Positions 4,412 to 25,860 of a stretch of DNA of 34,336 nt are shown one piece after another; position 1 is the stretch's first letter; every line of letters begins with the position of its first letter. Made by a program: the position numbers and the translations under genes. The notes under the pieces are model-generated. The model had not been told where the DNA came from and did no database searches. It saw only the letters and a list, made by a program, of their open reading frames with translations. This DNA comes from Clostridia bacterium (GTDB lineage: Bacteria > Bacillota > Clostridia > Christensenellales > Aristaeellaceae): assembly GCA_030529995.1 (NCBI GenBank), contig JAUMVT010000028.1, forward strand, positions 1-34,336, given 5' to 3'.

Positions 4412-5293
4412 TTACTTAACAAACGTTCGCACCAGGTCAAGAAAATGCTTGCTGCCTACATCCAGCGGGTGATTCTTGGAGTACGCAAGGCTGATGGGGG
4501 TAACAATGCGCGGCTCAATATCCAGCACGACCAGGTCGTCGCTCATCAGCGGCTTGGTGGGCTTCTTGGTCAGTAGCGCAATGCCCATGCCCTTGCAGAC
4601 CAGATCGATGATGTTTTCCGCCCGATAGCCGGTAAAGACAACGTTCGGCGTGAACCCGGCGGCCTTGCAGCTCTGCACACAAAGGGAATACATGAAGGTG
4701 TCCTTGCCCAGCAGAATCAGGGATTCTCCCTTGAGCTGATCCAGGTGTATGACCTTTTCCCGAGCCAGCGGATGGGACTTGGGCAAGAACGCCCCTAAAT
4801 GATCTGTGGTAAAGCGAACCTTGTTGAATTCGTTATCTAAGTCATCCCATTCACGGATGAATGCGAGGGAGCACTGATTGGAACGCAGCATTTTCGTCAG
4901 CTGGTTGGAATCCCCTTCGATTACGTCCAGCGTGAAACGTGGATTTTCCTGCCGAAAGCGAACCATCACATCGGTAATGCCATAATGCGACATCATCGGA
5001 ATGGAACCGATGCGAATGTTGCCGTGCTCGGCGTTGAGCGCATTGCCCAAGGCAGTGGTGTATTCGTGATGCAGCGCAGCCATTTGCCGAGCATAGGGAA
5101 GAAACAGGGTGCCGAAAGCATTGAGGGTAACGCTGCGGGTTGATCGGTCAAACAGCGCCACACCCAGCTCCTCTTCCAGGCTTTTGATATGCCTTGACAG
5201 CGCAGATTGGGAAATGAACAGCTGCTCGGCAGCCTCCATATAGTTGCAGGTATTGGCTAGCACAACAAACTCGCGAATATAGCCAATGTCCAT
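4412..5293 (-). CDS. LysR-family transcriptional regulator
   Basis: Protein of 293 aa, the usual LysR length. The N-terminal winged helix-turn-helix is at about 4-60 (FVVLANTCNYMEAAEQLFIS, QSALSRHIKSLEEELGVALF, DRSTRSVTLNAFG). The effector-binding domain covers about 90-293 (GNIRIGSIPMMSHYGITDVM, then GESLILLGKDTFMYSLC and GMGIALLTKKP). It is divergent from the ceramidase-like gene at 5484, the classic LysR arrangement, and so probably controls the ten-gene cluster in response to a substrate or intermediate. The ATG at 5293 is preceded by GGAGG at 8 nt; upstream codons in the same frame fall in the promoter region. Confidence 0.95.
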   Translation of the reverse strand: MDIGYIREFVVLANTCNYMEAAEQLFISQSALSRHIKSLEEELGVALFDRSTRSVTLNAFGTLFLPYARQMAALHHEYTTALGNALNAEHGNIRIGSIPMMSHYGITDVMVRFRQENPRFTLDVIEGDSNQLTKMLRSNQCSLAFIREWDDLDNEFNKVRFTTDHLGAFLPKSHPLAREKVIHLDQLKGESLILLGKDTFMYSLCVQSCKAAGFTPNVVFTGYRAENIIDLVCKGMGIALLTKKPTKPLMSDDLVVLDIEPRIVTPISLAYSKNHPLDVGSKHFLDLVRTFVK

Positions 5294-5376
5294 CGGGGGT
5301 CCTCCCTTCCTGAACTGACTTGACAGCGGAAAGCATTCATTATTGCACGTTCTGCATAAATGATAAAGAAAAGTGG

Positions 5377-5396
5377 TTTGATTGTCAACAGTCAAA
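5377..5396. promoter_or_regulatory. candidate LysR operator
   Basis: A near-perfect dyad TTTGATTGT-CA-ACAGTCAAA (8 of 9 pairs) lies in the 190-bp gap between the LysR gene and the hydrolase cluster. It covers the -35 region of the candidate cluster promoter. LysR proteins typically bind interrupted dyads in such gaps. Confidence 0.5.
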
Positions 5397-5407
5397 TCTG
5401 CTATATT
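5378..5407 (+). promoter_or_regulatory. candidate promoter of the hydrolase-transporter cluster
   Basis: TTGATT (5378-5383), an 18-bp spacer and TATATT (5402-5407). It overlaps the dyad at 5377-5396, which fits a LysR-regulated promoter with a weak -35 box. An alternative pairing is TTGTCA (5382) with TATTCT (5404). Confidence 0.4.
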
Positions 5408-5483
5408 CTATTTGAAAGCATGAGAGCGCAAAAAAACAACATGCCGATGAAGGCAAAACGGACAAACATGGGGAGGCGAAAAC

Positions 5484-6731
5484 ATGAGGGTCGGCGCAGC
5501 AACATATCCTATTGTTCTTCCGGCAGACTTTCTTCCGACGGAAGGATTCACAAAGCAGATTGACGAGCTGCACGCCCGGGTGCTGGCCATGGAAAACGAA
5601 AGCCGGCTGGCACTGATGGCGGTGGAGGTGACCTCCCTGCCGCCGGAGGAAATCGAGGCACTCAAAGCCATTGTCTGTAAGGCAAGCGGGGCAGAAAAAG
5701 CGTTCATCTGCGTGACGCACACCTTTTCCGCACCTCACTTCATGCCGGATCATCAGCTGGATGATGCAGGGAAAGCGAAAAAGGCGGAGCTTCGCAAGGC
5801 TGTGCAGCTGGCCGCCCAGCAAGCGGCACGGGATGCGGCACAGGCAATGAGGCGGGCACGGCTGACCGTCGGTGAAGCAATGTGCACGGTAAACACTCCC
5901 CGGGACGTGGAAACCCCTATGGGCTGGTGGATTGATCACAACGGGAAGGGACCGGTGGATCATCGGCTGACGACCTTGGGCTTTACGGATGAAAAAAATG
6001 TGCGCATTGCCACCCTGCTCCATTATCCGATTCAATCTTCCGTACTGGACGGCTCCCAGCTGCGTGAAGGCGGCAAGGCGGTTTCCGGTGACTTGGCCGG
6101 CTGGCTGGCCTCCGAAGTCGAAAAGCAAACGAATGCCCCGGCACTTTTCCTAGTCGGTGCGGCAGGAGATCAGGCACCCAGAGAAAAGGCTGTGGGGTTT
6201 GTGGCGGAAGAAAAGGAACTGCATCGGACAGACAGGCAAGATGAAGCCATTGAAGCCGGCCGACTGCTGGCACAGGAAATGGCACAGGCGGCTTTTCAGG
6301 CCATTGCAGGGGAACGGCAAATCAAGGCAGATCCCCTGACCTTTACGGAAACAAAGGTTGTTGTGCCGGCCAAGAAGATGGAACGTGATCTGCACAAGCT
6401 GCATCCCACACGCATTGCGCCCTATGAAGCGGATGGGGAAAGCGTGCAGCCGGTTAGCCTGTTGACGATTGGCGAGACGCGGTGGATCGGCGTGCGGCCG
6501 GAGCTGAACTGTGTGACGGCTCAGGGGATTACGGCGGAGGATCCGCTGTCCAGGGTGATCACCCTTTTTGACGGCGGGGCAAAGTACATGGCGGATGCAC
6601 TTTCCTATGACCGCATCACCTATGAGGCGATGAACTCCCCCTTCGGGCAAGGTGCTGCGGAGCGTTTGGCTAAGGCAGCCAAGACGCTATTGACAAACGG
6701 ATTTGACGTTCGGCGAGAGAACGTTGAATAA
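5484..6731 (+). CDS. neutral/alkaline ceramidase-like hydrolase
   Basis: Protein of 415 aa. It fits the N-terminal catalytic domain of the neutral ceramidase family: RVGAATYPIVLP at the start, a strand RLALMAVEVTSLP (41-53), THTFSAPH (79-85; THTHSGP in the family), NTPRD (137-141), HYPIQSSVLDG (180-190), and FLVGAAGDQAPR (222-233) at the place of the family's N-GAAGD-SP motif. True ceramidases hydrolyse the amide of ceramide; short bacterial relatives in Clostridia have unknown substrates. No signal peptide is seen, so it should act in the cytosol. It is the first gene of the LysR-linked cluster and lies 23 bp before the binding-protein gene. Confidence 0.7.
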   Translation: MRVGAATYPIVLPADFLPTEGFTKQIDELHARVLAMENESRLALMAVEVTSLPPEEIEALKAIVCKASGAEKAFICVTHTFSAPHFMPDHQLDDAGKAKKAELRKAVQLAAQQAARDAAQAMRRARLTVGEAMCTVNTPRDVETPMGWWIDHNGKGPVDHRLTTLGFTDEKNVRIATLLHYPIQSSVLDGSQLREGGKAVSGDLAGWLASEVEKQTNAPALFLVGAAGDQAPREKAVGFVAEEKELHRTDRQDEAIEAGRLLAQEMAQAAFQAIAGERQIKADPLTFTETKVVVPAKKMERDLHKLHPTRIAPYEADGESVQPVSLLTIGETRWIGVRPELNCVTAQGITAEDPLSRVITLFDGGAKYMADALSYDRITYEAMNSPFGQGAAERLAKAAKTLLTNGFDVRRENVE

Positions 6732-6754
6732 ATGAAAGAAAGGTGGAAAACGTA

Positions 6755-8284
6755 ATGAAGAAGTTTCTATCCATGCTGTTGGTTCTTACCATGGCACTGA
6801 CCTGCTGCTTCGGCACCATTGCCTCGGCAGAGGCGGACAAGGTGGTTGTCGGCATTACCATTGATCCCGGCAATATCGGCCCCTTCCAGGGCATGAGCGC
6901 CGGCCGCATCGGCATTCTGTTCACGACCTACGAATTCCTGACGACCAAGGTCAACGGCGAGCGTGTCAACTGCCTGGCGAAGGAAGTTACCCAGGTGGAC
7001 GAAAAGACGGTTGACGTTGAGATCTATGATTACATCGTCGATCAGGCAGGGAATCCGCTGACCGCCGCCGATGTTGCATGGAGCTACCAGACCGGTATGG
7101 ACTCTGGCAATCTGCCCAAGCTTTCCGCCATTGCAAGCGTTGAGGCGACAGGCGATTACACCGTGCGCTTTGTGTTCAACGAGCTGTCCGCCGGCGACCT
7201 TGACGCACTGCTGATGGAGTGCCCCATTGTCACCCGTGCCGCCTACGAGGCTAGCCCTGACCAGATGGCCACCGACCCGGTAAGCACCAGTGCCTATCAG
7301 GTGGTGAGCTACGTTTCCGGTTCAAAGATCGTTTACAAGGATACCGGCAAGTATTGGCAGACGGACGACAGCCTCGTGCCGCTGACTTCCAAGCACAATG
7401 TTGAGAACATCGAAATCGACATCATCCCGGATACCGCGCAGCTGACCAACGCCCTCAAGACCCGGGCCATTGACGTTTCCGTGTGGATCTCCGCAACGGA
7501 TATTGCCGACTTCAAGGATCAGCCCGGCTTCACCGTATCCCAGATGCCGGAAAACAGCACCGAGGTGTTCCTGTTCAATTGTTCCGACCAGTCCGTGTTT
7601 GCCAACAATCCTGATCTGCGCAAAGCCGTTGCCTATGCCATTGATTCCGAGCTGATTGCCGAAGGCGCATACAACGGGGATGCCCGTCCGGTCAAGACCT
7701 ACGGCAACACCAAGTACGCCGACTATGTGGATGCCTGGAATGACGAATCCTACTACGAGTACGACTTGGATAAGGCTAAGGAGCTGTACGCAGCCTCCGG
7801 CGCAAGCAATGTGAATCTTAAGCTGATGTACGTTACCAGTGACGAAACGGCCATGATGGCCACCATCGTTCAGGCGGAGCTGGCGGAACTGGGCATTAAC
7901 GTGGAGCTTTGCGGCTATGATTCTCAGCTCTTCAACCAGTACAAGTTTGACGGCGCCGATCAGTGGGACATCATGATCGACGAAGTAGCCTCCTCCACCA
8001 ACCTTGCCAACGTCTATAAGCTGGCATGGGACTGCAACGGCTACACCCACAGCGGTACGCTGAATTACGTGGATGATGCACAGCTCCAGAGCCTGCTGGA
8101 GGCAGCCATGAACGAAAAGACCCATAACGATGAAACGATGAATGCCTTCCACCAGTATCTGAAGGAGCAGTGCTACGGCATTGGCCTGGTTCAGAAGCTG
8201 AGCAATGTGGCACACACCGACACCATCAAGACGCTGGCGACCTGCTTCCGCGGTCAGGTGCTGCCGGGCGCATGCGAATACTGA
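6755..8284 (+). CDS. ABC transporter substrate-binding protein, family 5 (Opp/Dpp type)
   Basis: Protein of 509 aa. It starts with a signal peptide MKKFLSMLLVLTMALTC, probable cleavage after ASA (residue 25). Two cysteines (17-18) lie in the hydrophobic core but do not form a good lipobox, so surface anchoring is uncertain. The body matches extracellular solute-binding family 5: VDVEIYDYIVDQAGNPLTAADVAWSY, FNCSDQSVFANNPDLRKAVAYAID, and the usual C-terminal lobe. Such proteins bind oligopeptides, nickel, sugars or other small conjugates. The ATG at 6755 follows AGGTGG. A hairpin after the gene (8306-8337) should raise its level over the permeases. Confidence 0.9.
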   Translation: MKKFLSMLLVLTMALTCCFGTIASAEADKVVVGITIDPGNIGPFQGMSAGRIGILFTTYEFLTTKVNGERVNCLAKEVTQVDEKTVDVEIYDYIVDQAGNPLTAADVAWSYQTGMDSGNLPKLSAIASVEATGDYTVRFVFNELSAGDLDALLMECPIVTRAAYEASPDQMATDPVSTSAYQVVSYVSGSKIVYKDTGKYWQTDDSLVPLTSKHNVENIEIDIIPDTAQLTNALKTRAIDVSVWISATDIADFKDQPGFTVSQMPENSTEVFLFNCSDQSVFANNPDLRKAVAYAIDSELIAEGAYNGDARPVKTYGNTKYADYVDAWNDESYYEYDLDKAKELYAASGASNVNLKLMYVTSDETAMMATIVQAELAELGINVELCGYDSQLFNQYKFDGADQWDIMIDEVASSTNLANVYKLAWDCNGYTHSGTLNYVDDAQLQSLLEAAMNEKTHNDETMNAFHQYLKEQCYGIGLVQKLSNVAHTDTIKTLATCFRGQVLPGACEY

Positions 8285-8305
8285 TTCATTTGCCCCTTGT
8301 CGGGA

Positions 8306-8345
8306 GGCGCTGCGGCTTCATAGGGGGTCGCAGCGCCTTCTTTCA
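8306..8345 (+). terminator. intra-operon hairpin after the binding-protein gene
   Basis: A 9-bp perfect stem GGCGCTGCG / CGCAGCGCC (8306-8314, 8329-8337) is followed by TTCTTTC. It lies in the 103-bp gap between the binding protein and the first permease. A leaky terminator or mRNA-stabilising hairpin here would give an excess of binding protein. Confidence 0.6.
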
Positions 8346-8387
8346 GCAACATGACCCGGCATAACGGCAAAAGGAAGAGAGGGCAAC

Positions 8388-9344
8388 ATGGGAAGATATA
8401 TTCTCAAGCGTCTGCTGTGGATGATTCCGGTGATGCTGGGCATTGCCGTCCTGATTTTCTCCATCATGTATATCTGCCCCGGCGACCCGGCTGCATCTAT
8501 GCTGGGTACGGGTGCGACCCAGGTGCAGATTGAGGCCAAGCGGGAGGAAATGGGGCTTAACGACCCGTATATCGTCCGCCTCGGGCGTTACCTGTGCGAC
8601 GTTTTCCTGCATTTTGATTTGGGCACAAGCTACATGTACGGCACCCCCGTCATCGATGGTCTGATGGAACGCATGCAGTACACGCTGGTCATTGCGCTGT
8701 CCTGCATGCTGATGCAGATTCTCATCGGTACGCCCTTAGGGATTATTGCTGCAACGCATCGCAACGGCATTGCGGATCGAATCTGCATGTTCATCGCCAT
8801 GCTGGGTGTGAGCATCCCGGCCTTCTGGCTGGCACTGATGATGGTGGTGGTATTCGCTGTGAACCTGGGGTGGCTTCCGGCGTTTGGTGTAGGCGGCTTC
8901 AAGTACTACATCATGCCATGCCTGGCCAACTGTCTGGCAGGCGTGGCGACACAGGCACGGCAGACCCGATCCAGCATGCTGGAGGTCATTCGTTCGGACT
9001 ATGTGACCACAGCGAAGGCGAAGGGGCTTTCCGAACGCAGTGTGCTGCTCAAGCATGCACTCCCCAATGCCTTGATTCCCATCATCACCATTGTGGGCAA
9101 TGGCATGGGCATGATGCTGGGCGGCACGGTGGTCATTGAGAACGTGTTCTCCATCCCCGGCATCGGCAGCTACATGACCAGCGCCATCAACAGCCGGGAT
9201 TATCCCATCGTCATGGGCGGCGTGCTGCTACTGGGGCTGATCTTCAGCCTGATTATGCTGCTGGTGGATGTGGTCTATGCCTTTGTTGACCCGCGCATCA
9301 AAGCCCAGTACGAAGGCAAAAAGAGGAGGAAGAGCCATGCGTAA
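8388..9344 (+). CDS. ABC transporter permease, DppB/OppB type
   Basis: Protein of 318 aa with six predicted membrane helices. The N-terminus YILKRLLWMIPVMLGIAVLI is typical of the DppB/OppB family. The cytoplasmic EAA loop that docks the ATPases is SDYVTTAKAKGLSERSVLLK. It pairs with the next gene, with which it overlaps by 8 bp (ATGCGTAA), to form the membrane channel of the importer. Confidence 0.92.
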   Translation: MGRYILKRLLWMIPVMLGIAVLIFSIMYICPGDPAASMLGTGATQVQIEAKREEMGLNDPYIVRLGRYLCDVFLHFDLGTSYMYGTPVIDGLMERMQYTLVIALSCMLMQILIGTPLGIIAATHRNGIADRICMFIAMLGVSIPAFWLALMMVVVFAVNLGWLPAFGVGGFKYYIMPCLANCLAGVATQARQTRSSMLEVIRSDYVTTAKAKGLSERSVLLKHALPNALIPIITIVGNGMGMMLGGTVVIENVFSIPGIGSYMTSAINSRDYPIVMGGVLLLGLIFSLIMLLVDVVYAFVDPRIKAQYEGKKRRKSHA

Positions 9345-10215
9345 AACCAACGACGTGATGCATCGCCGCCGCAAGGAGGGGCAGTTCGCACAGGTCATGC
9401 ATCGGCTGCGCAAAAATAAGGCTGCCATGCTTGGGTTGAGCATTGTACTGGTGCTCATTGTGCTGGCCATTCTTTCTCCGTGGATCATGCCCTACGACTA
9501 CACGAAGATGGACATCAAAAACAAGTATGCCACGCCCAGTGCTGACCACTGGTTTGGCTGCGACGAGCTGGGGCGGGACATTTTCTCCCGACTGCTGTAC
9601 GGTTCCCGTGCTTCCCTGAGCCTGGGACTGCTGGCAACGCTGCTTTCCACAGCCATCGGCGTGGTGCTGGGTTCGGTGGTCGGTTACTTTGGCGGCAAGG
9701 TTGACACGGTGATCATGCGGCTGCTGGACATCTTTCAGGCCATCCCCGGGATGCTGCTTTCCATTGCCATTTCTGCTGCCCTGGGCTCGGGCTTCGGCAA
9801 CACGATTATTGCCCTTTCCATCGGCGGTGTGCCGATGACGGTTCGCCTGCTGCGGGGCTCCATCCTGACCGTCCGTAAGCAGGAATACATTGAGGCGGCT
9901 GAAAAGATTAACTGCAGCAAGCTGCGGATCATCACTTCGCACATTCTGCCCAACGCAATCGCACCGCTGATTGTATCGGTGACCATGGGCATCGGCAACA
10001 CGATTCTGCAGGCGGCCTGCTTGAGCTATATCGGCCTGGGTGTGCAGCCCCCCACTCCGGAATGGGGCGCCATGCTCTCCGCCGGCAAGTCCGTCATTAC
10101 CCGCTACCCCCACCTGTGCATTTTCCCCGGTCTGTGCATCATGGTGATCGTGCTGAGCTTCAACATGCTGGGCGACGGTCTGCGTGATGCAATGGATCCC
10201 AAGCTGAAGAACTAA
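9337..10215 (+). CDS. ABC transporter permease, DppC/OppC type
   Basis: Protein of 292 aa. The N-terminus has the short DppC/OppC cytoplasmic segment FAQVMHRLRKNKAAMLGLS and then a first helix. HWFGCDELGRDIFSRLLYGS is the diagnostic OppC-type motif, and the EAA loop is EYIEAAEKINCSKLRIITSH. The ATG at 9337 is preceded by GAGGAGG and overlaps the end of the upstream permease, so translation is probably coupled. The next gene starts 13 bp downstream. Confidence 0.92.
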   Translation: MRKTNDVMHRRRKEGQFAQVMHRLRKNKAAMLGLSIVLVLIVLAILSPWIMPYDYTKMDIKNKYATPSADHWFGCDELGRDIFSRLLYGSRASLSLGLLATLLSTAIGVVLGSVVGYFGGKVDTVIMRLLDIFQAIPGMLLSIAISAALGSGFGNTIIALSIGGVPMTVRLLRGSILTVRKQEYIEAAEKINCSKLRIITSHILPNAIAPLIVSVTMGIGNTILQAACLSYIGLGVQPPTPEWGAMLSAGKSVITRYPHLCIFPGLCIMVIVLSFNMLGDGLRDAMDPKLKN

Positions 10216-10228
10216 GGAGGCTGAAACC

Positions 10229-11224
10229 ATGGACACCATCAAAAAGGATGCGCTGCTTTCCGTGCGTCACCTGACCGTGGAATACACCTCCGAGGGTGAA
10301 GTGATTCATGCGGTCAATGATGTATCATTCGATTTGGAGAAAGGGAAAACCATCGGCCTGGTCGGCGAAACAGGCGCAGGGAAAACCTCCATTGCCAAGG
10401 CCATTCTTCGGATTCTGCCTGAGCCGCCTGCCCGGGTGAAGACCGGCGAAATCTGGTTTGAAGGCCGGGAACTGCTGGGGCTGAAGGAAGAGGAGATGCG
10501 GAAGATTCGCGGCAAAAACATCTCCATGATCTTTCAGGATCCGATGACGGCACTGAACCCGATCATGCGCATCGGAAAGCAGATTGCCGAGGTCATCCGC
10601 CTGCATGAAAAATGCAGCAAGGCGCAGGCCGTCCAAAAGGCGAAGGAAATGCTGGAGATGGTCGGCATTCCCGGCGAACGTTACTATGAGTATCCGCATC
10701 AGTTTTCCGGCGGCATGAAGCAGCGTGTGGTCATTGCCATGGCGCTGGCCTGTGCGCCCGACCTGCTGCTGGCCGACGAGCCGACAACGGCACTGGACGT
10801 GACGATTCAGGCTCAGGTGCTGGATATGATCAACGAGCTGAAAGAGCGGCTCAACACCTCCATGGTGATGATCACCCACGATCTTGGCGTGGTGGCTCAG
10901 GTCTGCGACAGCGTGGCAGTGGTCTACGCAGGGGAGATCATGGAGTACGGCACCAAGGAGCAGATTTTCGATCATCCGCTCTACCCCTATACCAAGGGCT
11001 TGTTCGGGTCGCTGCCGGACATGAACGATGATGCCGAGCGGCTTTCTCCCATTGAGGGATTGCCGCCGAACCCGGCGGATCTGCCGAAGGGCTGCGCCTT
11101 CCATCCCCGCTGCCCTTATGCAACAGAAGCTTGTAAACAGGCGCATATTCCGCTGACAGACATGGGTGGCGGGCACCTGTGCCGCTGCTGCCGCGTAAGC
11201 GAAATTGCAAAGGAGGGAACATGA
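10229..11224 (+). CDS. ABC transporter ATP-binding protein, DppD/OppD type
   Basis: Protein of 331 aa. The Walker A is GETGAGKT (46-53), the Q-loop MIFQDPMTALNP, the signature FSGGMKQR (159-166), the Walker B LLLADEP with the D-loop TTALD, and a switch histidine in MITHDLG. The C-terminus has the oligopeptide-transporter extension with cysteines (KGCAFHPRCPYATEACKQ), which in some relatives binds an Fe-S cluster. All catalytic residues are present. AAGGAGG precedes the ATG. The stop overlaps the start of the next ATPase gene (ATGA). Confidence 0.93.
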   Translation: MDTIKKDALLSVRHLTVEYTSEGEVIHAVNDVSFDLEKGKTIGLVGETGAGKTSIAKAILRILPEPPARVKTGEIWFEGRELLGLKEEEMRKIRGKNISMIFQDPMTALNPIMRIGKQIAEVIRLHEKCSKAQAVQKAKEMLEMVGIPGERYYEYPHQFSGGMKQRVVIAMALACAPDLLLADEPTTALDVTIQAQVLDMINELKERLNTSMVMITHDLGVVAQVCDSVAVVYAGEIMEYGTKEQIFDHPLYPYTKGLFGSLPDMNDDAERLSPIEGLPPNPADLPKGCAFHPRCPYATEACKQAHIPLTDMGGGHLCRCCRVSEIAKEGT

Positions 11225-12186
11225 TGGAAGTACCCATGATCGAGGTCAGACACCTGAAAAAGTATTTCGACACGCCCAAAGGCCTGCTTCATGCGGTGGA
11301 TGATGTTTCCTTCAAAATCGGCAAAGGGAAAACCATGGGTGTGGTGGGCGAGTCCGGCTGCGGCAAAAGCACGCTGGGGCGCACCATCATTCACCTGCTG
11401 GAAAGCACGGATGGGCAGATTTTCCTGAACGGCGAGGATATTACCCATGTGAATCGGAAAAAGATGCACGAGATCAATGAGAAGATGCAGATCGTCTTCC
11501 AAGATCCCTATTCTTCCCTGAACCCGCGGCAGACGGTTGAGGAGATTATCAAGGAGCCGCTGAAGCTTTCAGGCCGCTATAAAACCCGTGCTGAGTTGAA
11601 TGCAAAGACGGAAGAGCTGATGGGGCTGGTGGGCATTGATGAGCGGCTGCGGCTGGCTTACCCCCATGAGCTGGATGGAGGACGCCGCCAGCGTGTAGGT
11701 ATTGCACGGGCACTGGCACTCAGCCCGGATTTTATCGTCTGCGATGAGCCGGTTTCTGCCCTGGATGTATCCATTCAGGCGCAGGTGCTGAATCTTTTGC
11801 AGGATTTGCAGCAGCAGCGCGGACTGACGTATATGTTTGTCACGCACGACCTTTCTGTTGTGCGCCATATTTCCGACGACATCTGCGTCATGTATCTGGG
11901 ACAGCTGGTGGAAACCGCCCCTGCAAAGGAACTGTTTGCCGCACCGCTGCACCCGTATACCAAGGCGCTGCTTTCCGCCATTCCTTCCACGGATATTCAC
12001 AGCAAGCAGGAGCGGATCCGCCTGAAGGGCGAAATCACTTCGCCCATTGATCCTAAACCCGGTTGCCGGTTTGCGGCGCGCTGCCCATATGCCTGTGAAA
12101 ACTGCCGCAAGCTCCAGGAACTGCAGGAGCTGATGCCCAATCACTTCGTCTCCTGCTGCCGCGCGAAAGAGATCAACGGATTGTGA
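11221..12186 (+). CDS. ABC transporter ATP-binding protein, DppF/OppF type
   Basis: Protein of 321 aa. The Walker A is GESGCGKS (43-50), the Walker B FIVCDEP with VSALD, and the switch histidine is in FVTHDLS. The signature reads LDGGRRQR (151-158), with Asp in place of the usual Ser of LSGGQ; I believe this variant occurs in other clostridial OppF proteins, so it is probably functional. The C-terminal cysteine segment PGCRFAARCPYACENC is present. It completes the two-ATPase, two-permease importer. A second ATG at 11224 is an equally good start. The next gene begins 11 bp downstream. Confidence 0.92.
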   Translation: MMEVPMIEVRHLKKYFDTPKGLLHAVDDVSFKIGKGKTMGVVGESGCGKSTLGRTIIHLLESTDGQIFLNGEDITHVNRKKMHEINEKMQIVFQDPYSSLNPRQTVEEIIKEPLKLSGRYKTRAELNAKTEELMGLVGIDERLRLAYPHELDGGRRQRVGIARALALSPDFIVCDEPVSALDVSIQAQVLNLLQDLQQQRGLTYMFVTHDLSVVRHISDDICVMYLGQLVETAPAKELFAAPLHPYTKALLSAIPSTDIHSKQERIRLKGEITSPIDPKPGCRFAARCPYACENCRKLQELQELMPNHFVSCCRAKEINGL

Positions 12187-12197
12187 GGAAAAAAGCC

Positions 12198-13409
12198 ATG
12201 AAAGAACCGCAAATGATGGAAATCACAACCCTTGTGGAGGCTCATTCTGCCGGGGCACGCATGACGGCCGTTGTCATTGAATACAGCGATGCGGTGCTGG
12301 GAGAGAAGCTGCGCATGGAGGACTTCCAGGTGGAGGGCTATCCGATTGTTGCGGCCTGCGCCTCGGACACGCCCCGGGGAACGGTGGCGCGGACAGGACG
12401 CTTTGTGCAGCTCATTCTGGATGAACAGAATCCGGCAACCCGGCTTTGCCAAATGGGGGAGGATCGGCGGCTGCAGATCAATCGGCCAACCCTTATGGTG
12501 ACGCAGAAGCGCCCCATTGAAATGGCCAGCGGCAAGCAGGCTGCACCGTTTGAGCAGCAAGCATCGGAGCACATGGATGCAGGGGTGATTGATCGCTTTC
12601 TGACGGCCTCCTTCACCACAAAGACGGGGCAGACCCTGCGCTATAACCTGTATACACCGGAGAAGATTGTCCGCGGGCAAAAGTATCCTGTCGTGCTTTT
12701 CATCCATGATTTGGGCTCCTGCTCGGAGGATGTGCAGGCACCTCTTCTGCAGGGCACGGGGGCAACCGTTTGGGCACTGGAATCCGATTACGGCCGCAGA
12801 CCCTGCTTCGTCCTCGCACCCCAGTACACCCGCCAGTGCGCCAATGATGACTTTGAAGTGACGTGGGAAGCGGATGCAACCGTGGAGCTGCTGGAAAATC
12901 TTTGCGATCTTTACGCCATTGACCGGAAGCGCATTTACGCAACCGGGCAGTCCATGGGCTGCATGATGATCTGCGAAATGATGCTGCGCAACCCGAATTT
13001 CTTTGCAGCCAGTCTGCTTGTTGCAGGTCAGTGGGATCCGGCGCGTATGGCGAAAGCAAAGAACGAAACCCTCTGGGTGGTTGTCTCCGGCGGCGATGAA
13101 AAGGCGTTCCCCATCATGCGGAAAGCACTGTACGGCATGCGGGCGGCAGGCGGATCCCTGTGCGAGGCGCATGTGAATGCCAGGGCGGATGCGGCCATGC
13201 TGGATGCCTTGATCCGCACCCAGAACAACCGGAACTGCAACCTGAATTTTACCTGGTTCGAGGGCAGGAGCGTGATCCCGGACGGGCTGGAGGTGCACGG
13301 CGGCATGCATCACATTTGCACCTGGAAAAAGGCTTACGACATCAAGGCGCTGCGGGAATGGCTCTTTGAACAGCGGCTTTACGAGGGGAGGATCAGCGTT
13401 CATGATTGA
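12198..13409 (+). CDS. EstA-like esterase with Ig-like N-terminal domain
   Basis: Protein of 403 aa. The first ~110 residues form a beta-rich segment (MTAVVIEYSDAVL, PRGTVARTGRFVQLIL) like the Ig-like N-terminal domain of EstA-type esterases. The alpha/beta-hydrolase domain follows: QTLRYNLYTPEK, YPVVLFIHDLG (oxyanion region), the nucleophile elbow GQSMG (250-254, Ser252), VVSGGDEK (Asp300), and HGGMHH (His371 or His372). There is no signal peptide, so it acts on imported material. Related proteins are annotated as PHB-depolymerase-type or prolyl-oligopeptidase-like esterases; the substrate is unknown. The ATG at 12198 has GAGG 9 nt upstream. The gene overlaps the next by 8 bp. Confidence 0.75.
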   Translation: MKEPQMMEITTLVEAHSAGARMTAVVIEYSDAVLGEKLRMEDFQVEGYPIVAACASDTPRGTVARTGRFVQLILDEQNPATRLCQMGEDRRLQINRPTLMVTQKRPIEMASGKQAAPFEQQASEHMDAGVIDRFLTASFTTKTGQTLRYNLYTPEKIVRGQKYPVVLFIHDLGSCSEDVQAPLLQGTGATVWALESDYGRRPCFVLAPQYTRQCANDDFEVTWEADATVELLENLCDLYAIDRKRIYATGQSMGCMMICEMMLRNPNFFAASLLVAGQWDPARMAKAKNETLWVVVSGGDEKAFPIMRKALYGMRAAGGSLCEAHVNARADAAMLDALIRTQNNRNCNLNFTWFEGRSVIPDGLEVHGGMHHICTWKKAYDIKALREWLFEQRLYEGRISVHD

Positions 13410-14289
13410 TTTTTCATGCAAGAAGGACATTTATCTGGAAGATGAGGACGGGCTGATCCTGCCCATGAGTGAGCCTTACTTTCGGGCGAAGCAAATTGCT
13501 CCGGGCACATGGCAGGTGCTTTCTGACGGTGATTATTCCTACCTGCTGGAGGGAGACGAGGAAGCACTGCTGATTGATTCCGGCTATGGTGCGGGCAATA
13601 TCAGAGCATATTGTCAGACACTGACGGATAAGCCTCTTGCCAAAATTGCCAATACCCATGACCACTTTGACCACACCGCCAACAACAGTTATTTTGATTT
13701 GACCTATCTGTCTGCGGAAACAAAGCCGCTGGCAACCATTCCCTTTCCCAGCTTTGCAGGCATTGATTTTCCGCGGAATTATCCGGTGCAGATCGTTGGC
13801 GACGGTGATGTGATTCCGCTTAAGGGGCGGGAACTGCTGGTCTTTGAGATTCCGGATCACGCCGTGGGCAGCCTTGCTTTTCTTGATAGAAGAGAGCGGA
13901 TTCTTTTCTCCGGCGACGAGTTCTCACCAATGGGGAAAAACTTAAACGGCGGTGTGACCCACTGGCTGGCCATGCTGCAGAAGCTTGCCCCCTACCGCAA
14001 GGATTTTGACCGTCTCTGCGCAGGCGCATGGATCATGGATGCTTCCGTCTTTGATGCTCAACTGGCCTGCACCCGGTATATTCTGGACGGACACGAGGGG
14101 GAGCCGGCGGAAGCGGCGAATTTCCCAAACACGGAACGGTTTGACGAGGCAGGACGGAGAATCTGGAAGCGCCGCCTGCCCCATCCGGGGGATGGACCGA
14201 AGAACATGAATGCCGGGCTTGCATGGAGGCGAACCGTGCATTACGGCGGAACAAGCATTACGTACGATATCCGCAAACTGCACGAATGA
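13402..14289 (+). CDS. MBL-fold metallo-hydrolase
   Basis: Protein of 295 aa. All metal ligands of a two-zinc MBL hydrolase are visible: THDHFDH (85-91; His86, His88, Asp90, His91), PDHAVGS (His153), SGDEFSP (Asp172) and LDGHEGE (His231). No signal peptide. Members of this broad family act as lactonases, thioesterases, lactamases and others, so the exact reaction cannot be read off. Its place between two esterase-type genes suggests hydrolysis of an intermediate of the same pathway. The ATG overlaps the upstream stop; GGGAGG is ~10 nt upstream. Confidence 0.85.
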   Translation: MIDFSCKKDIYLEDEDGLILPMSEPYFRAKQIAPGTWQVLSDGDYSYLLEGDEEALLIDSGYGAGNIRAYCQTLTDKPLAKIANTHDHFDHTANNSYFDLTYLSAETKPLATIPFPSFAGIDFPRNYPVQIVGDGDVIPLKGRELLVFEIPDHAVGSLAFLDRRERILFSGDEFSPMGKNLNGGVTHWLAMLQKLAPYRKDFDRLCAGAWIMDASVFDAQLACTRYILDGHEGEPAEAANFPNTERFDEAGRRIWKRRLPHPGDGPKNMNAGLAWRRTVHYGGTSITYDIRKLHE

Positions 14290-14339
14290 AGGCGGCGGTA
14301 CGTCCTGCCTTAAGCTCTGATAAAAAGGAGAGTGACCGT

Positions 14340-15371
14340 ATGGTCATCGACGCAAATGTATACTGGTTCCCGGAAGCCATGTTTCAGGATGACGCGCTGC
14401 GTGCCCGGTTCTTCATGGATGTTCCCCGGGGCTATGGGACAAACGGCAAAATGGTTTCCCGCAACGGCAAAAAGCAGATTGTTATTGAGCGGCCCGTTGG
14501 CTGTCCGGGGGTGGACTATGTTGAAGGTGATTACACACTGGAAGGCATGCTTGCTGCCATGGATGAGGCAGGAGTGGACAAGGCCGTCATGAAGGTTCCT
14601 TGCGTCCACGAGTGGATGAGCCTGGACATGTGCCGCTACTTCAATGACGGTATGGCGGACTTTGCACGCCGCTCCGGCGGCAGGCTGACGGCTCTGGCGG
14701 TGATTCCGCCCTGGGGACATGAGGCGCAGCTGGCTGAGCTGGATCGCTGCTATCAGCAGCTGGGCATGCGGGGGGTACAGCTTTGTGCCCACTACGGCAA
14801 ATATTATCTGGATGATGCGGTCTTTGCGGCTCTGTTTGAGCGGCTGAACACCTATGGCATGAATGCCTACGTGCACCACACCCCTGTCCCGGTGGAATAT
14901 GCCAGCATTGCGGATTACACCAATTTGCGCCGCAGCCTTGGCCGCTGCATGGATCAGCTGACGGCCGTGGGGCGTGAGCTGTTCAGCGGTATGTTCGAGC
15001 GTTACCCGAGGGTGCGGCTGATTCACTCCATGCTGGGCGGCGGCTTCTTCACCTTCAGTGAAATGCTGATGCCCCATGGCCCTGCGGCACCGGATGCCTC
15101 CGGCCGATTTACCGCAACCCCGGAAAGCATGCGCCGCCACTTGGCCAATAACCTGTTCTTCGAAATGAGCCATGCTCAGCCCTGGGGCAAGGTGCTGCTG
15201 GAAACGGCGGTGCAGGTGCTGGGGGCAGACCATATCATCTACGGTTCTTCTTCCCCGGTGAAGGCAGAATGGATGCGGGGCGGGCCGGACTTTGTACGTA
15301 CGCTGGCAGTCAGTGAAGCCGACAAGGAACTGATGCTTTATGGTAATGCAAAGCGGCTGTATCAGCTGTAG
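14340..15371 (+). CDS. amidohydrolase-2-like protein with degenerate metal site
   Basis: Protein of 343 aa. The overall pattern is that of the amidohydrolase-2 family, which includes aromatic-acid decarboxylases: IDANVYWFP at the N-terminus, RGVQLCAHYGKYYLDD, NAYVHHTP (His179-His180), RLIHSMLGGG (His229), and HIIYGSSSP (300-306). The canonical first HxH is replaced by Asn6-x-Tyr8, and the final metal-binding Asp (GSDxP) by Ser. So at most two of the usual ligands remain, and it may be non-catalytic or use another mechanism. It has its own GGAG site 50 bp after the MBL gene. A hairpin follows it. Confidence 0.7.
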   Translation: MVIDANVYWFPEAMFQDDALRARFFMDVPRGYGTNGKMVSRNGKKQIVIERPVGCPGVDYVEGDYTLEGMLAAMDEAGVDKAVMKVPCVHEWMSLDMCRYFNDGMADFARRSGGRLTALAVIPPWGHEAQLAELDRCYQQLGMRGVQLCAHYGKYYLDDAVFAALFERLNTYGMNAYVHHTPVPVEYASIADYTNLRRSLGRCMDQLTAVGRELFSGMFERYPRVRLIHSMLGGGFFTFSEMLMPHGPAAPDASGRFTATPESMRRHLANNLFFEMSHAQPWGKVLLETAVQVLGADHIIYGSSSPVKAEWMRGGPDFVRTLAVSEADKELMLYGNAKRLYQL

Positions 15372-15386
15372 ACACCTCTTTCCTGG

Positions 15387-15423
15387 GCTGCCTCTGAAAC
15401 AGATCGGAGGCAGCTCATTTTTT
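15387..15423 (+). terminator. terminator-like hairpin inside the cluster
   Basis: An 8-bp stem GCTGCCTC / GAGGCAGC with a 12-nt loop (15387-15414) is followed by TCATTTTTTTC. It lies between the amidohydrolase-like and tannase-like genes and looks like a genuine intrinsic terminator. It probably works only partly, since no promoter is obvious before the next gene. Confidence 0.7.
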
Positions 15424-15444
15424 TCTGATCAAGGAGGATTGAAC

Positions 15445-16803
15445 ATGAACCAATGGAAATTTTGCCCTTCCCTTGACTGCTGGTGCATGGAGGATGTGGT
15501 CTATACCGACAAGGCGGCAGTGCCGCAGGCGCAGCGTCTGTCTGTTTTTGCACCGAAGGCCTATCTGAGCGAAACGGGGATCATTCAAGAAAGGGGCGCA
15601 TGCGGCCGATATACGGCACAGAATGCACCGGTCATTTTTGAGAACAATGCGGCAGGATATATGGAAATGCCGAACACCCATCCCGGTGAGGATCGTTTCT
15701 TCGGTTCGCCTTATCTGGCGCAAGGCATGGTTTATGTAACCTGCGGCTGCCGTGGTCGATCAAGCCGGAACGAGCAGGGCGAGTATGTGGGCAAGGCGCC
15801 TATGACGATTGTGGATTTTAAGACGGCGATTCGCTTTCTGCGACATCATCGTGGGGTGCTTCCCGGTGACTGGAACAGGCTGATCAGTGTCGGCTTCAGC
15901 GCAGGAGGCGCCATGAGTGCCCTGCTGGCGGTATCAGGTGATCATCCGGACTATGATCCGTATCTGCGGGAAAACGGTGCCTATATGGAGGAAAGCGATG
16001 CGGTGTATGCTGCGCAGATTTACTGCCCCATCATCGACCTGGAGCATGCGGACATGGCCTATGAATGGCAGTTCGGGGCGGATCCGCAAAGTGAGGAAAG
16101 CTATGCCGGACCTGCCGAAATCATGACGCCCTTCAAGGAGGCGGTCAGCCGCAAGCTCAGCAGCATGTATGTGACCTATGTGAACGGGCTGGAGCTGACA
16201 GACCCCCGGACGGGGGAGGTGCTAACCCTGGGAGAAGACGGAAGAAGCGGCTCTTTTTACGAGTGTGTGATGCGCCGGCTGAGCGATGCGGCAAAGCTCT
16301 GCGGTGAGCAGCCGCCGGTTGATTTGGATGAAGATGTGCTGCACCGGCGCAGGCGGATGAAAGCCTGCACGGCCTTCGATCGGCTGGATGAACAGTCCGG
16401 CGAGAATGAGCTTTTCGGAAACAGGGCGCAAAACACGGCTCACTTTAGTCTCTCTGTCGCAAAAGCGGTTGCAAGCGTGGCAGAGCAATTTCCTGAGGAA
16501 GCTGCCTCATTGGCGGAGGGCTGGAAGCACTGCAGTGATGAAGGGTTTCAAACACGGCTGCGGCTGCTCAATCCCTTGGCGTACATTCGGGATCCGCAAG
16601 GGAAGAAGGCCGTCCATTACCGGATTCGTGTTGGCGCAGACGACGCAGATACAGCTTTCTCCGTCTCCATGACGCTGGCCGTCATGCTGCAGAATGCACA
16701 CCTTGGCACGGTGGATGATGCACTGGTGTGGCATCAGCCTCACTGCGAGGCGGATCTCCCGGGGCAGATTCAGGCGTGGATCCATCAGATTTGTAGGCAA
16801 TAA
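15445..16803 (+). CDS. subtype-B tannase-like serine esterase
   Basis: Protein of 452 aa, close to the ~470 aa of Lactobacillus plantarum tannase. The fit is along the whole length: VFENNAAGYMEM-like N-terminal strand region, GMVYVTCGCRGRSS, GKAPMTIVDFKTAIRFLRHH, the nucleophile motif GFSAGG (Ser152), and the C-terminal block HYRIRVGADDADTAF (Asp402) followed by WHQPH (His433). The Asp-His spacing (31) and Ser-Asp spacing (250) agree with the tannase triad as I recall it (S163, D419, H451). The usual PHSGDYD after the histidine is PHCEAD here, so substrate specificity may differ. No signal peptide; it would act on imported esters. AAGGAGG precedes the ATG. Confidence 0.7.
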   Translation: MNQWKFCPSLDCWCMEDVVYTDKAAVPQAQRLSVFAPKAYLSETGIIQERGACGRYTAQNAPVIFENNAAGYMEMPNTHPGEDRFFGSPYLAQGMVYVTCGCRGRSSRNEQGEYVGKAPMTIVDFKTAIRFLRHHRGVLPGDWNRLISVGFSAGGAMSALLAVSGDHPDYDPYLRENGAYMEESDAVYAAQIYCPIIDLEHADMAYEWQFGADPQSEESYAGPAEIMTPFKEAVSRKLSSMYVTYVNGLELTDPRTGEVLTLGEDGRSGSFYECVMRRLSDAAKLCGEQPPVDLDEDVLHRRRRMKACTAFDRLDEQSGENELFGNRAQNTAHFSLSVAKAVASVAEQFPEEAASLAEGWKHCSDEGFQTRLRLLNPLAYIRDPQGKKAVHYRIRVGADDADTAFSVSMTLAVMLQNAHLGTVDDALVWHQPHCEADLPGQIQAWIHQICRQ

Positions 16804-16816
16804 GGAGCAAAAGAAG

Positions 16817-18238
16817 ATGCAGAACCAACCCCGTGACAATAGCTTTCTTGGAACGGCTCCCCTTGGCAGGCTGATGCGGATGTTTTCCGTGCCCTGCATC
16901 ATTTCGCTGCTGGTGGCGGCTCTGTATAACATTGTGGATCAGATTTTTATCGCCAATGCGGATTACCTCGGTTCATACGGCAATGCAGCCAATACGGTGG
17001 TTTTCCCCATGACGATGATCGCCCTGTCGCTGGCTGTGATGATTGGCGATGGTGCGTGTACCTTTGTCAGCATCAGCCTGGGCGCCAAGAACCCGGAGAA
17101 TGCGCACAAGACCGTCGGCAGTGCGGTGATACTCTGCCTCGTGGTCAGTGCAGTGCTTACAACGGTCTATCTTGTATTCAGTACGCCGATTCTTGCGGCA
17201 TTCGGCGGCATGGTCAATGAACGCACCTTTGAATTGTCCAAGGAGTATTTCACCATCATCTCCATCGGCATTCCGTTTTACATGTTCGGGCAGTGTATGA
17301 ATCCCATCATTCGTTCCGACGGCAGCCCCCGCTTTGCCATGGGGTCTACGGTTGCAGGCGCACTGGTGAACGTTGTGCTGGATCCGATCATGATTTACGG
17401 CTTCAAGTGGGGCATGGCAGGCGCGGCCTGGGCGACGATCATCGGGCAGATGGTTACGGCGGCGCTTGCCGTCTGGTATATGATGCGGATGAAGGCGGTG
17501 AAGCTGCAAAAGAGCAGCTTCCGCCTGCATGTGCCGCTGGCGGCTCGCTTTGTACCCATGGGGCTGACCAGCTTTCTCAGCCAGATTTCCGTGGTTGCTT
17601 CCATGGCCGCCGTGCAGAATATGACGATGCAGTACGGTGCTCTTGATCCGATTTTTTCCCAAGATGGGCTGACGCAGATCCCCATGGCTGTGCTGGGCAT
17701 CGTAATGAAGTTTTTTCAGATCGTGATTGCGTTTGCTGTAGGCTTTTCTGCCGGGTGCATTCCCATCGTAGGTTATAACATCGGTGCAGGACGAAAGGAT
17801 CGTGCGAAGCGACTCTTTCAGATGATGATCGGTGCAGAGCTTGTTACCGGTCTGGCTGCACTGGCCATTGTGGAGTGCTTCCCCGGTCAGCTGATTCGCC
17901 TGTTTGGCGCAGCGGGAGAGAGCTCCTATTATACCGAGTTTGCGATCCGCTGCTTCCGAGTGTATCTGTGCATGCTGCCTCTGGCGACCATCAATAAGGG
18001 GACGTTCATCTACTTGCAGGCGCTGGGGAAGGCCGTGCTTTCCTCAGGCATTTCACTGGTGCGTGAAATTGTCTTCGGCTGCGGTCTGCCGATTTTGCTG
18101 CCTGTGTTCTTTGGCCTCGATGGTGTGCTGTATTCCATGCCTGCGGCAGATGTGCTGACGTTCCTGATTGCAGCAGCGGTGATTGTGCACGTCATGCAGC
18201 AGCTGGATGTGAAGGATGGAGGAGAAAGAAGCGCATGA
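16817..18238 (+). CDS. MATE-family multidrug/metabolite efflux transporter
   Basis: Protein of 473 aa, typical MATE length, with about 12 membrane helices in two related halves. Diagnostic segments are LGRLMRMFSVPCIISLLVAALYNIVDQIFI at the N-terminus (written here in part only: PCIISLLVAALYNIVDQIF), INPIIRSDGSPRFAMG-type (here NPIIRSDGSPRFAMGS), and the second-half AVGFSAGCIPIVGYNIGAG. MATE proteins expel cationic or aromatic compounds in exchange for H+ or Na+. As the last gene of the cluster, 13 bp after the tannase-like gene, it probably exports a hydrolysis product or protects against the substrate. The ATG at 16817 follows GGAG. Confidence 0.93.
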   Translation: MQNQPRDNSFLGTAPLGRLMRMFSVPCIISLLVAALYNIVDQIFIANADYLGSYGNAANTVVFPMTMIALSLAVMIGDGACTFVSISLGAKNPENAHKTVGSAVILCLVVSAVLTTVYLVFSTPILAAFGGMVNERTFELSKEYFTIISIGIPFYMFGQCMNPIIRSDGSPRFAMGSTVAGALVNVVLDPIMIYGFKWGMAGAAWATIIGQMVTAALAVWYMMRMKAVKLQKSSFRLHVPLAARFVPMGLTSFLSQISVVASMAAVQNMTMQYGALDPIFSQDGLTQIPMAVLGIVMKFFQIVIAFAVGFSAGCIPIVGYNIGAGRKDRAKRLFQMMIGAELVTGLAALAIVECFPGQLIRLFGAAGESSYYTEFAIRCFRVYLCMLPLATINKGTFIYLQALGKAVLSSGISLVREIVFGCGLPILLPVFFGLDGVLYSMPAADVLTFLIAAAVIVHVMQQLDVKDGGERSA

Positions 18239-25817: not shown

Positions 25818-25860
25818 AGAACCTTTTCCCCAGAACCATTGGACAATGGAGGATGGAACT

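What the first reader, a model, noticed from the sequence alone, without database searches (positions are those of the whole stretch)
4412..18238. LysR-controlled cluster joining an Opp-type importer, five different hydrolases and a MATE exporter
Ten co-directional genes are divergent from a LysR regulator. They are a ceramidase-like hydrolase, binding protein, two permeases, two ATPases, EstA-like esterase, MBL hydrolase, amidohydrolase-2-like protein and subtype-B tannase-like esterase, followed by a MATE pump. Gaps are mostly 11-50 bp or overlaps of 4-8 bp, so this looks like one operon. I know of no described pathway with this set. A reasonable reading is uptake of an ester- or amide-linked conjugate (perhaps a plant phenolic ester), stepwise cleavage in the cytosol and export of a product.
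Basis: partly seen in the sequence, partly recalled or inferred. Interest (0 to 1): 0.85.

Follow-up and report, generated by a model that had tools for sequence, protein, structure and literature searches.

The report
Tannin-linked uptake and cleavage gene cluster
A Clostridia genome carries a gene set, found rearranged in other bacterial groups, that probably imports plant tannin-type esters, cuts them inside the cell and exports the aromatic remainder, using two enzyme families whose usual metal-binding sites are altered.

Summary
In detail: LysR faces cer-sbp-perm1-perm2-atp1-atp2-est-mbl-amh-tan-mate. It is a conserved module: two other genera of the family repeat the order almost exactly and others keep large blocks; a genome of a Spirochaete class holds nine of the genes rearranged; Enterococcus raffinosus has lysR-amh-cer. 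A promoter motif between lysR and cer recurs in relatives before sbp and before est/tannase, suggesting one regulon. Tan passes the tannase-B cut-off and keeps the galloyl-binding residues. The "amidohydrolase" is closest to LigW/ACMSD decarboxylases, but in 27 of 27 rows the metal Asp is Ser and a conserved His is Met, and the first HxH His is missing in 26 of 26 rows that cover it; 11 of 11 ordinary relatives keep that Asp and His. Corrections: a strong terminator-like hairpin lies between amh and tan, so not simply one operon; amh is probably not a classical hydrolase. Best reading: import of galloyl-type esters, cytosolic cleavage, processing of the freed acid, export. Substrate inferred; nothing assayed. 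New variant of tannin-degradation systems. Interest 0.62.

The parts
4412..5293 (-). LysR-type regulator
   Evidence: PF03466 3.9e-38, PF00126 1.3e-18; 47-68% identical regulators beside the set in L166, L167, L170, L172, L174, L178
5345..5380 (+). Conserved motif GCA-N6-GCA-NN-AAT-N7-AAA-N3-GGTTTG between lysR and cer; overlaps a candidate lysR promoter (5388-5360) and abuts a candidate cer promoter (5382-5409)
   Evidence: alignment of 7 divergent regions; 0 mismatches here; promoter-like sites; matrix scan. Binding by LysR is inferred
5484..6731 (+). cer: ceramidase-fold enzyme with altered site (HTF..SAPH and QSS where canonical forms have HTH and VH)
   Evidence: family profile hits neutral ceramidase 2zws 5.1e-8; site comparison
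6755..8284 (+). sbp: family 5 solute-binding protein of the importer
   Evidence: PF00496 6.3e-55
8285..8387 (+). stable hairpin after sbp
   Evidence: -50 kcal/mol, z -5.65; hairpin in 8 of 8 sbp-perm1 gaps folded
8388..9344 (+). perm1: Opp/Dpp-type permease
   Evidence: PF00528 7.9e-45; best NCBIfam Opp2B 328 bits, below its cut-off of 350
9337..10215 (+). perm2: second permease
   Evidence: ORF; 77-80% identical partners in family clusters; not scanned against Pfam
10229..11224 (+). atp1: importer ATPase
   Evidence: ORF; 76-84% identical partners in family clusters; not scanned against Pfam
11221..12186 (+). atp2: importer ATPase
   Evidence: PF00005 9.1e-30, PF08352 3.3e-19
12183..13409 (+). 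est: serine esterase with EstA Ig-like N-terminal domain
   Evidence: PF18435 7.5e-13, PF00326 2.9e-5; nearest solved 3doh, 2.2e-27
13402..14289 (+). mbl: metallo-beta-lactamase-fold hydrolase with HxHxDH motif
   Evidence: PF00753 9.3e-15; motif read by eye
14340..15371 (+). amh: ACMSD/LigW-like enzyme lacking the canonical metal site (N6, M231, S304; invariant H180, H229)
   Evidence: PF04909 3.7e-22; profile best hit LigW2 2.2e-27; site counts
15384..15417 (+). intrinsic-terminator-like hairpin plus T run between amh and tan
   Evidence: 14-bp stem; -25.6 kcal/mol, z -4.7 for 15375-15430
15445..16803 (+). tan: subtype B tannase
   Evidence: NF041556 327.4 bits, cut-off 300; nearest solved are tannases 3wa6 and 4j0g
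16817..18238 (+). mate: MATE-family efflux transporter
   Evidence: PF01554 4.5e-37; TIGR00797 159.6 bits, cut-off 147.4

Best explanation
This is a LysR-controlled import, cleavage and export module for galloyl-type phenolic esters (hydrolysable-tannin fragments). Proposed steps: the five-part Opp-type importer takes up a small tannin fragment such as a galloyl ester or glucoside (inferred); tan, est, cer and mbl split ester or lactone bonds in the cytosol (tan: strong by homology; the others inferred); amh acts on the freed polyhydroxybenzoate, most likely as a metal-free non-oxidative decarboxylase (inferred); mate exports the aromatic product (inferred), leaving the sugar or alcohol part for growth. 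LysR senses an intermediate and switches on the cer promoter and, in relatives, separate tannase, esterase and importer promoters (shared motif shown, binding not shown). Shown by computation: gene content, conservation, the shared motif, tannase linkage, intact tannase residues, and the altered sites of amh and cer.
For: Tan scores 327 bits against NF041556 (cut-off 300) and keeps Ser163, Asp419, His451, Lys343, Glu357 and Asp421 of L. plantarum tannase (read off the alignment; roles from PMC4233993, passages). Same family: cer next to sbp in 9 of 9 strong cer loci, mbl next to amh in 10 of 12 strong amh loci. Tannase-family gene within 15 kb of amh in 5 of 11 other strong-amh genomes, 0.16 expected, P 2e-7; strong tannase somewhere in 9 of these 11 against 31 of the 199 other genomes, P 8e-7 (hand counts). 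Importer of the same type beside tannase without amh in two Hungatella species and a roe-deer Clostridia genome (L012, L014, L007). L253, class of a Spirochaetaceae genome, holds sbp, two permeases, two ATPases, cer, amh, est and mbl together. The motif also lies before est|tan, DUF554-tan and sbp. amh sits in what looks like an aerobic aromatic-acid operon in Thioclava (MFS, FAD monooxygenase, FAA hydrolase) and near a beta-glucoside PTS in E. raffinosus. In the family, UbiD is absent from 11 of 12 cluster genomes and PF00384 molybdoenzymes from 12 of 13, so known gallate-decarboxylase and molybdenum routes are missing and export of an aromatic is plausible.
Against: A terminator-like hairpin separates amh from tan. 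5 of 12 strong amh loci show no close MATE within 5 kb (two on short contigs, one with it about 10 kb away). 6 of 10 Negativicutes amh loci lack tannase in the stretch fetched, and two of the four that have it were found through tannase in the first place. All 4 of 4 genomes tested outside the family do hold UbiD, so there amh need not replace it. Importer, cer, mbl and amh travel together more tightly than tannase does, so the true substrate could be something tannase only helps to reach. Decarboxylation is inferred from family and context; losing the metal could mean another chemistry.
Confidence: 0.58

Rival explanations
1. Ellagitannin variant: amh works like Gordonibacter Eah, opening and decarboxylating ellagic acid to urolithin M5, with mbl perhaps as a lactonase and mate exporting a urolithin.
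For: [quoted passage not shown] That this entry is the ACMSD-type family is recalled; amh is nearest to that family. Ellagate, like gallate, has no hydroxyl ortho to the carboxyl (recalled chemistry), so loss of a chelating metal would fit.
Against: The Eah sequence was not obtained; orthology is untested. No PF00384 molybdoenzyme (family of the dehydroxylases, recalled) in 12 of 13 cluster genomes. The tannase residues point to galloyl esters.
Confidence: 0.15
2. General scavenging of acylated peptides or other ester/amide conjugates: the Opp importer takes peptides, and the tannase is a neighbour that cuts something else.
For: Importer family is Opp/Dpp; the core block without an adjacent tannase is common; ceramidase-fold enzymes usually cut amides (recalled).
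Against: Tannase linkage P 2e-7; motif before tannase genes; no peptidase among the cluster genes; galloyl-binding residues intact; amh in an aromatic-type operon of Thioclava.
Confidence: 0.15
3. Detoxification: the set removes toxic phenolics and the product is pumped out without nutritional gain.
For: Minimal lysR|amh-mate unit in G174 (L178); MATE pumps often export xenobiotics (recalled).
Against: An ATP-driven importer would bring the toxin in; a beta-glucoside PTS, GH3 and GH31 genes near amh or the motif suggest sugar gain.
Confidence: 0.08
4. amh is a catalytically dead scaffold or sensor rather than an enzyme.
For: Three canonical active-site positions are replaced.
Against: H179, H180, H229 and S304 are the same in 27 of 27 rows from several lineages, which is not decay.
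Confidence: 0.04

Closest known systems
Lactiplantibacillus plantarum tannin/gallate system (TanB, LpdB/C/D, transporter lp_2943)
   Same: Tannase makes gallate, a decarboxylase makes pyrogallol, the product leaves the cell (PMC4600210, abstract passages)
   Different: The decarboxylase there is LpdBCD (UbiD-type, recalled); UbiD is absent from 11 of 12 family cluster genomes. Here an ABC importer, an ACMSD-like enzyme, cer, est, mbl and a MATE pump lie beside a LysR gene
Gordonibacter eam cluster (Eah, Eadh1-3, MFS transporters, LuxR)
   Same: A decarboxylase-family enzyme acting on a tannin-derived aromatic, with transporters (PMC12771579, passages)
   Different: No dehydroxylases here, different regulator and importer; Eah sequence not compared
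LigW / gamma-resorcylate / ACMSD decarboxylases (PF04909)
   Same: Closest solved relatives of amh; His179 lines up with LigW His188
   Different: The other metal ligands, the acid Asp included, are replaced in the amh rows (roles from PMC8187880, passages)
gra gene cluster for gamma-resorcylate in Rhizobium (recalled, no call)
   Same: Decarboxylase beside FAD monooxygenase and MFS transporter, like the Thioclava amh operon
   Different: Thioclava amh has Met231 and Ser304 too; neighbouring genes differ
Neutral ceramidase (PF04734)
   Same: Fold-level similarity of the cer family
   Different: Shorter protein, no Pfam hit for the window copy, HTF and QSS in place of HTH and VH

Membership tests
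Subtype B tannase (NF041556) | Score above curated cut-off | tested here: met
   327.4 bits against 300
Subtype B tannase (NF041556) | Catalytic triad and galloyl-binding residues | tested here: met
   Ser163, Asp419, His451, Lys343, Glu357, Asp421 all matched in the alignment; roles from PMC4233993
Subtype B tannase (NF041556) | Galloyl esterase activity | not testable with these tools
   needs assay
ACMSD/LigW metal-dependent decarboxylases | Sequence family | tested here: met
   LigW2 4qs5 2.2e-27 with profile A1
ACMSD/LigW metal-dependent decarboxylases | Metal ligands (first-strand Glu/His, His, Asp) and Asp as general acid | tested here: not met
   position 6: N 25, D 1, uncovered 1; position 304: S 27 of 27 against D 11 of 11 in ordinary relatives; His179 kept in 27 of 27
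Neutral/alkaline ceramidase (PF04734) | Pfam gathering score | tested here: not met
   no hit at E 1 for the window protein
Neutral/alkaline ceramidase (PF04734) | Zinc ligands (recalled: His97, His204, Glu411, Tyr448) | tested here: inconclusive
   by eye, His, Glu and Tyr appear kept and the His204 position is Gln; ligand roles recalled, paper search empty
Opp/Dpp-type importer | Binding protein, two permeases, two ATPases | tested here: met
   sbp, perm1 and atp2 by Pfam; perm2 and atp1 by orthology only
UbiD-type gallate decarboxylase system (Lpd) | UbiD-family gene in the genome | tested here: not met
   PF01977 absent from the window's genome (92.2% complete, so a gap is possible) and 10 of 11 cluster relatives; present in 4 of 4 genomes outside the family
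Gordonibacter Eah | Orthology to Eah | not tested
MATE exporter | TIGR00797 cut-off | tested here: met
   159.6 bits against 147.4

The most novel reading that the evidence does not exclude
amh founds a metal-free branch of the ACMSD-like decarboxylases, rebuilt to decarboxylate para-activated polyhydroxybenzoates (gallate, or ellagate/HHDP) that lack the ortho-hydroxyl needed for metal chelation. With the altered ceramidase-fold cer, an esterase, an MBL enzyme, tannase and an ABC importer it forms a tannin pathway with no UbiD gene of its own, found in Clostridia and, in rearranged or partial form, in Negativicutes, Enterococcus and Spirochaetes.
Probability: 0.3. Interest if true: 0.82.

Novelty: new variant of a known kind. 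Interest (0 to 1): 0.62.

Why it matters
The best-described bacterial tannin route pairs tannase with the LpdBCD gallate decarboxylase. A module without a UbiD gene, with its own importer and two enzyme families with altered active sites, would explain how other gut-type bacteria use hydrolysable tannins, give a candidate metal-free aromatic decarboxylase, and make testable which organisms make pyrogallol- or urolithin-type products.

Tried and rejected
Considered and rejected or left open: sphingolipid (ceramide) use, because cer has no Pfam ceramidase hit and altered site residues; a chance gene string, because content recurs elsewhere; amh as an ordinary amidohydrolase. Led nowhere: viral contigs hold no amh relative; in a phylum-wide sample amh was found in 1 of 398 genomes, the window's own, so the wider kin came from tannase loci, the class of a Megamonas genome, the class of a Spirochaetaceae genome, and plasmids; of 129 plasmid records with a hit only the best 15 were listed, of which 6 (3 Enterococcus raffinosus, 3 Thioclava) are 48-50% identical and the other 9 are 23-28%; PHROGs gave nothing for the 2830-aa ORF; the ceramidase-ligand paper search was empty.

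Limits and rows dropped. Motif: G054 and G168 share near-identical loci (L172/L181, L173/L219; L170 resembles L172), so sites are not all independent; L214-L222 were fetched because one search matched there, so they are not an unbiased sample; the matrix control was one mononucleotide shuffle per locus; many of the 3-mismatch matches look like chance (control 11 against 77 in all; matches are not split by mismatch for the control). amh rows: L183 (partial) and L250 (in-frame stop, two short pieces) were left out of the 27; the 11 ordinary relatives were chosen from the weak hits, which hold more. The adjacency statistics use hand counts from call listings, assume random placement, and count some distant tannase-family members.


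Full report
WHAT IS THERE. The window (contig C83 of a 2.54-Mb, 92.2% complete genome in 102 contigs) holds twelve genes at 4412-18238: a LysR regulator on - and, on +, cer, sbp, perm1, perm2, atp1, atp2, est, mbl, amh, tan and mate. Ten of the twelve proteins were scanned against Pfam and NCBIfam; perm2 and atp1 were not, and rest on orthology. Most neighbours overlap by 4-8 bp or lie 11-50 bp apart. Exceptions are 103 bp after sbp, with a very stable hairpin (z -5.65; a hairpin in 8 of 8 such gaps folded), and 73 bp between amh and tan with a strong terminator-like hairpin at 15384-15417. Terminator-like sites as a whole are at chance level in the region (14 against a mean of 13.0); this one stands out by stem length and z -4.7. 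G070, which has no tannase after amh, also has a stable hairpin just behind amh (no control). So lysR|cer...amh is one likely unit, and tan-mate may be attenuated or separate. No promoter-like site was listed in the amh-tan gap.

CONSERVATION IN THE SAME FAMILY. In 200 family genomes, the window's own included, cer-like hits occur in 21 and amh-like hits in 26 at E 1e-3. Strong ones besides the window's: nine cer loci in eight genomes (over 130 bits) and twelve amh loci in eleven genomes (over 200 bits). I took these neighbourhoods (for G036, L003, whose hit has the same coordinates) and mapped them. cer is next to sbp in 9 of 9. mbl is next to amh in 10 of 12, one of them with a 182-aa ORF between; the two others are L178, and L182, where the contig starts 249 bp before amh. 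G070 and G170 repeat lysR|cer-sbp-perm1-perm2-atp1-atp2-est-mbl-amh almost exactly; G170 then has tan. A close MATE (50% identity or more) lies within 5 kb of amh in 7 of 12; G170 has one about 10 kb away. In G174 the unit shrinks to lysR|amh-mate.

ELSEWHERE. In the class of a Spirochaetaceae genome, G978 (L253) has sbp, perm1, perm2, atp1, atp2, a LacI regulator, cer, amh, est, an MFS transporter and mbl in one run: nine of the window's genes, rearranged; G958 (L254) has perm2, atp1, atp2, two cer-like genes and amh (extra genes). Only 3 of 248 genomes of that class hold cer at 1e-20, counting the centre G600, which came in through its tannase. In the class of a Megamonas genome (Negativicutes) 9 of 250 genomes hold amh at 1e-40, counting G597 and G598, which also came in through tannase. 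Of their ten amh loci 4 have tannase in the stretch fetched (2 of 8 without G597 and G598), and 7 of 10 have an MFS gene among the neighbours scanned; G730 (L252) has tan|lysR-amh-cer. An Enterococcus raffinosus plasmid has lysR (43%)-amh (50%)-cer (32%)-second cer-like gene-beta-glucoside PTS. Thioclava plasmids have MFS-FAD monooxygenase-amh-FAA hydrolase, which looks like an aerobic aromatic-acid operon. Two Hungatella species (L012, L014) and a roe-deer Clostridia genome (L007) have the same type of importer beside tannase, without amh or cer. In a phylum-wide sample amh was found in 1 of 398 genomes at 1e-40, the window's own, so it is a rare gene.

ONE REGULON. Seven divergent regions share a block ending in GGTTTG. 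As the pattern GCANNNNNNGCANNAATNNNNNNNAAANNNGGTTTG it matches the window at 5345-5380 with 0 mismatches. Twelve genomes give 77 matches at up to 3 mismatches against 11 for the reversed pattern; at up to 1 mismatch there are 14, of which 13 lie in the cluster loci and one before a secreted protein of G070. Many of the 3-mismatch matches are probably chance. A matrix from eight sites upstream of cer or amh was scanned over 37 loci, 460 kb: 34 sites at score 14 or more, none wholly inside a called gene, none in one set of mononucleotide shuffles. Thirty score 24 or more, of which 22 were not used for training. These lie before sbp in 8 of 9 cer clusters (not in G170, nor in the window, where cer and sbp nearly touch), between est and tan (L174), before DUF554-tan (L173, L219), before secreted proteins of about 500-570 aa with no Pfam hit (L173, L214, L217; a 198-aa piece in L215), before a GH31 gene (L218), beside a flavocytochrome-c-like operon (L183) and before a second Opp cluster (L216) (families). 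Some loci are near-identical pairs, and L214-L222 were fetched because the pattern matched there, so this is not an unbiased count. Binding by LysR is inferred from position.

TANNASE. Tan scores 327 bits against the subtype B model (cut-off 300); the nearest solved relatives are tannases 3wa6 and 4j0g. Ser163, Asp419, His451 (triad) and Lys343, Glu357, Asp421 (galloyl contacts; PMC4233993, passages) all have counterparts, read off the alignment. Among 11 other family genomes with strong amh, 5 carry a tannase-family gene within 15 kb (expected 0.16, P 2e-7), and 9 carry a strong tannase somewhere, against 31 of the 199 other genomes (P 8e-7; the script used 200) (hand counts). Eight tannase-like proteins from the fetched loci were scanned: four pass the B cut-off, one the A cut-off, and three are below (two secreted forms, and a broken copy of which only one piece was scanned).

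ALTERED ACTIVE SITES. amh's closest solved kin are LigW and other ACMSD-type decarboxylases. These bind a divalent metal through a first-strand Glu or His, a His and an Asp that is also the general acid in LigW, and chelate the hydroxyl and carboxylate of the substrate (PMC8187880, passages). In 27 amh rows (25 places: two genomes appear twice; L183 and L250 left out) position 6 is Asn in 25, Asp in 1 and uncovered in 1, position 231 is Met in 27 and position 304 is Ser in 27. Eleven ordinary PF04909 relatives have His in 10 (Asp in 1), His in 11 and Asp in 11. His179 is kept; His180 and His229 are invariant in amh and not in the others. The amh rows form one group apart from the ordinary relatives (100/97; midpoint root and long branches, so only a grouping). 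The pocket looks rebuilt rather than decayed. Gallate and ellagate lack an ortho-hydroxyl (recalled chemistry), so losing a chelating metal would make sense for them; this is inference. In cer, copies in amh, tan or importer clusters read H-T/S-F and QS where covered (two are cut at one or both places), while five other cer-like copies, two of them second copies in L252 and L254, read H-T/N-H and VH or TH; the two E. raffinosus copies show the same split, HTF/VQSS and HDH/VHST.

MECHANISM AND WHAT IS NOT SHOWN. I commit to import of a galloyl-type ester or glucoside, cytosolic cleavage, processing of the acid by amh and export by MATE (0.58). In the family 11 of 12 cluster genomes, the window's included, lack UbiD and 12 of 13 lack PF00384 molybdoenzymes, so the LpdBCD route of L. 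plantarum (PMC4600210, passages; UbiD kinship recalled) and molybdenum-dependent onward steps are missing there; these are draft genomes, so single absences are weak. Against this, 4 of 4 genomes tested outside the family do hold UbiD, so the module need not replace it everywhere. The Gordonibacter enzyme Eah turns ellagic acid into urolithin M5 (PMC12771579, passages); whether amh is its kin could not be tested. No described pathway with this set was seen in the listings, which cover open-licence papers only.

VERDICT. Observation confirmed; interpretation right in outline, corrected on operon structure and on amh. A new variant of tannin-degradation systems, with amh as the most interesting part.

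Noticed in passing
L173:504-2213, L214:2441-3946, L217:1131-2849: Secreted-looking proteins of about 500-570 aa, alike by eye and without Pfam or NCBIfam hits, sit directly behind the motif in cluster-bearing genomes; perhaps surface tannin-binding proteins.
   Followed up: partly
L173:2475-3176; also L219, L224, L225: A 233-aa DUF554 membrane protein (Pfam run on the L173 copy only) lies directly upstream of tannase in L173; L219, L224 and L225 have a 233-aa ORF at the same place.
   Followed up: partly
L172/L181 (G054/G168) and L173/L219: Two genomes of different genera share near-identical cluster sequences, suggesting recent transfer or cross-contamination of assemblies.
   Followed up: no
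window 25846-34335: An open reading frame of 2830 aa running to the window's end with DUF7507, Listeria-Bacteroides repeat and MucBP domains: a large surface protein.
   Followed up: partly
window 21151-23278: Histidine kinase and response regulator pair, on - strand downstream of the cluster.
   Followed up: no
L176:1206-13411: A second Opp-type cluster in G170 with two canonical-site ceramidase-like genes, each beside a PF00756 esterase: perhaps a sister system for another ester.
   Followed up: partly
L249:6825-9464: Upstream of amh in G616, one ORF joins an AP_endonuc_2 TIM barrel to an AMP-binding ligase.
   Followed up: no
L183:7246-10059: Motif-preceded operon with an FMN/FAD flavocytochrome-c-like reductase next to mate, amh and mbl in G195; may reduce an aromatic or acrylic side chain.
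   Followed up: no
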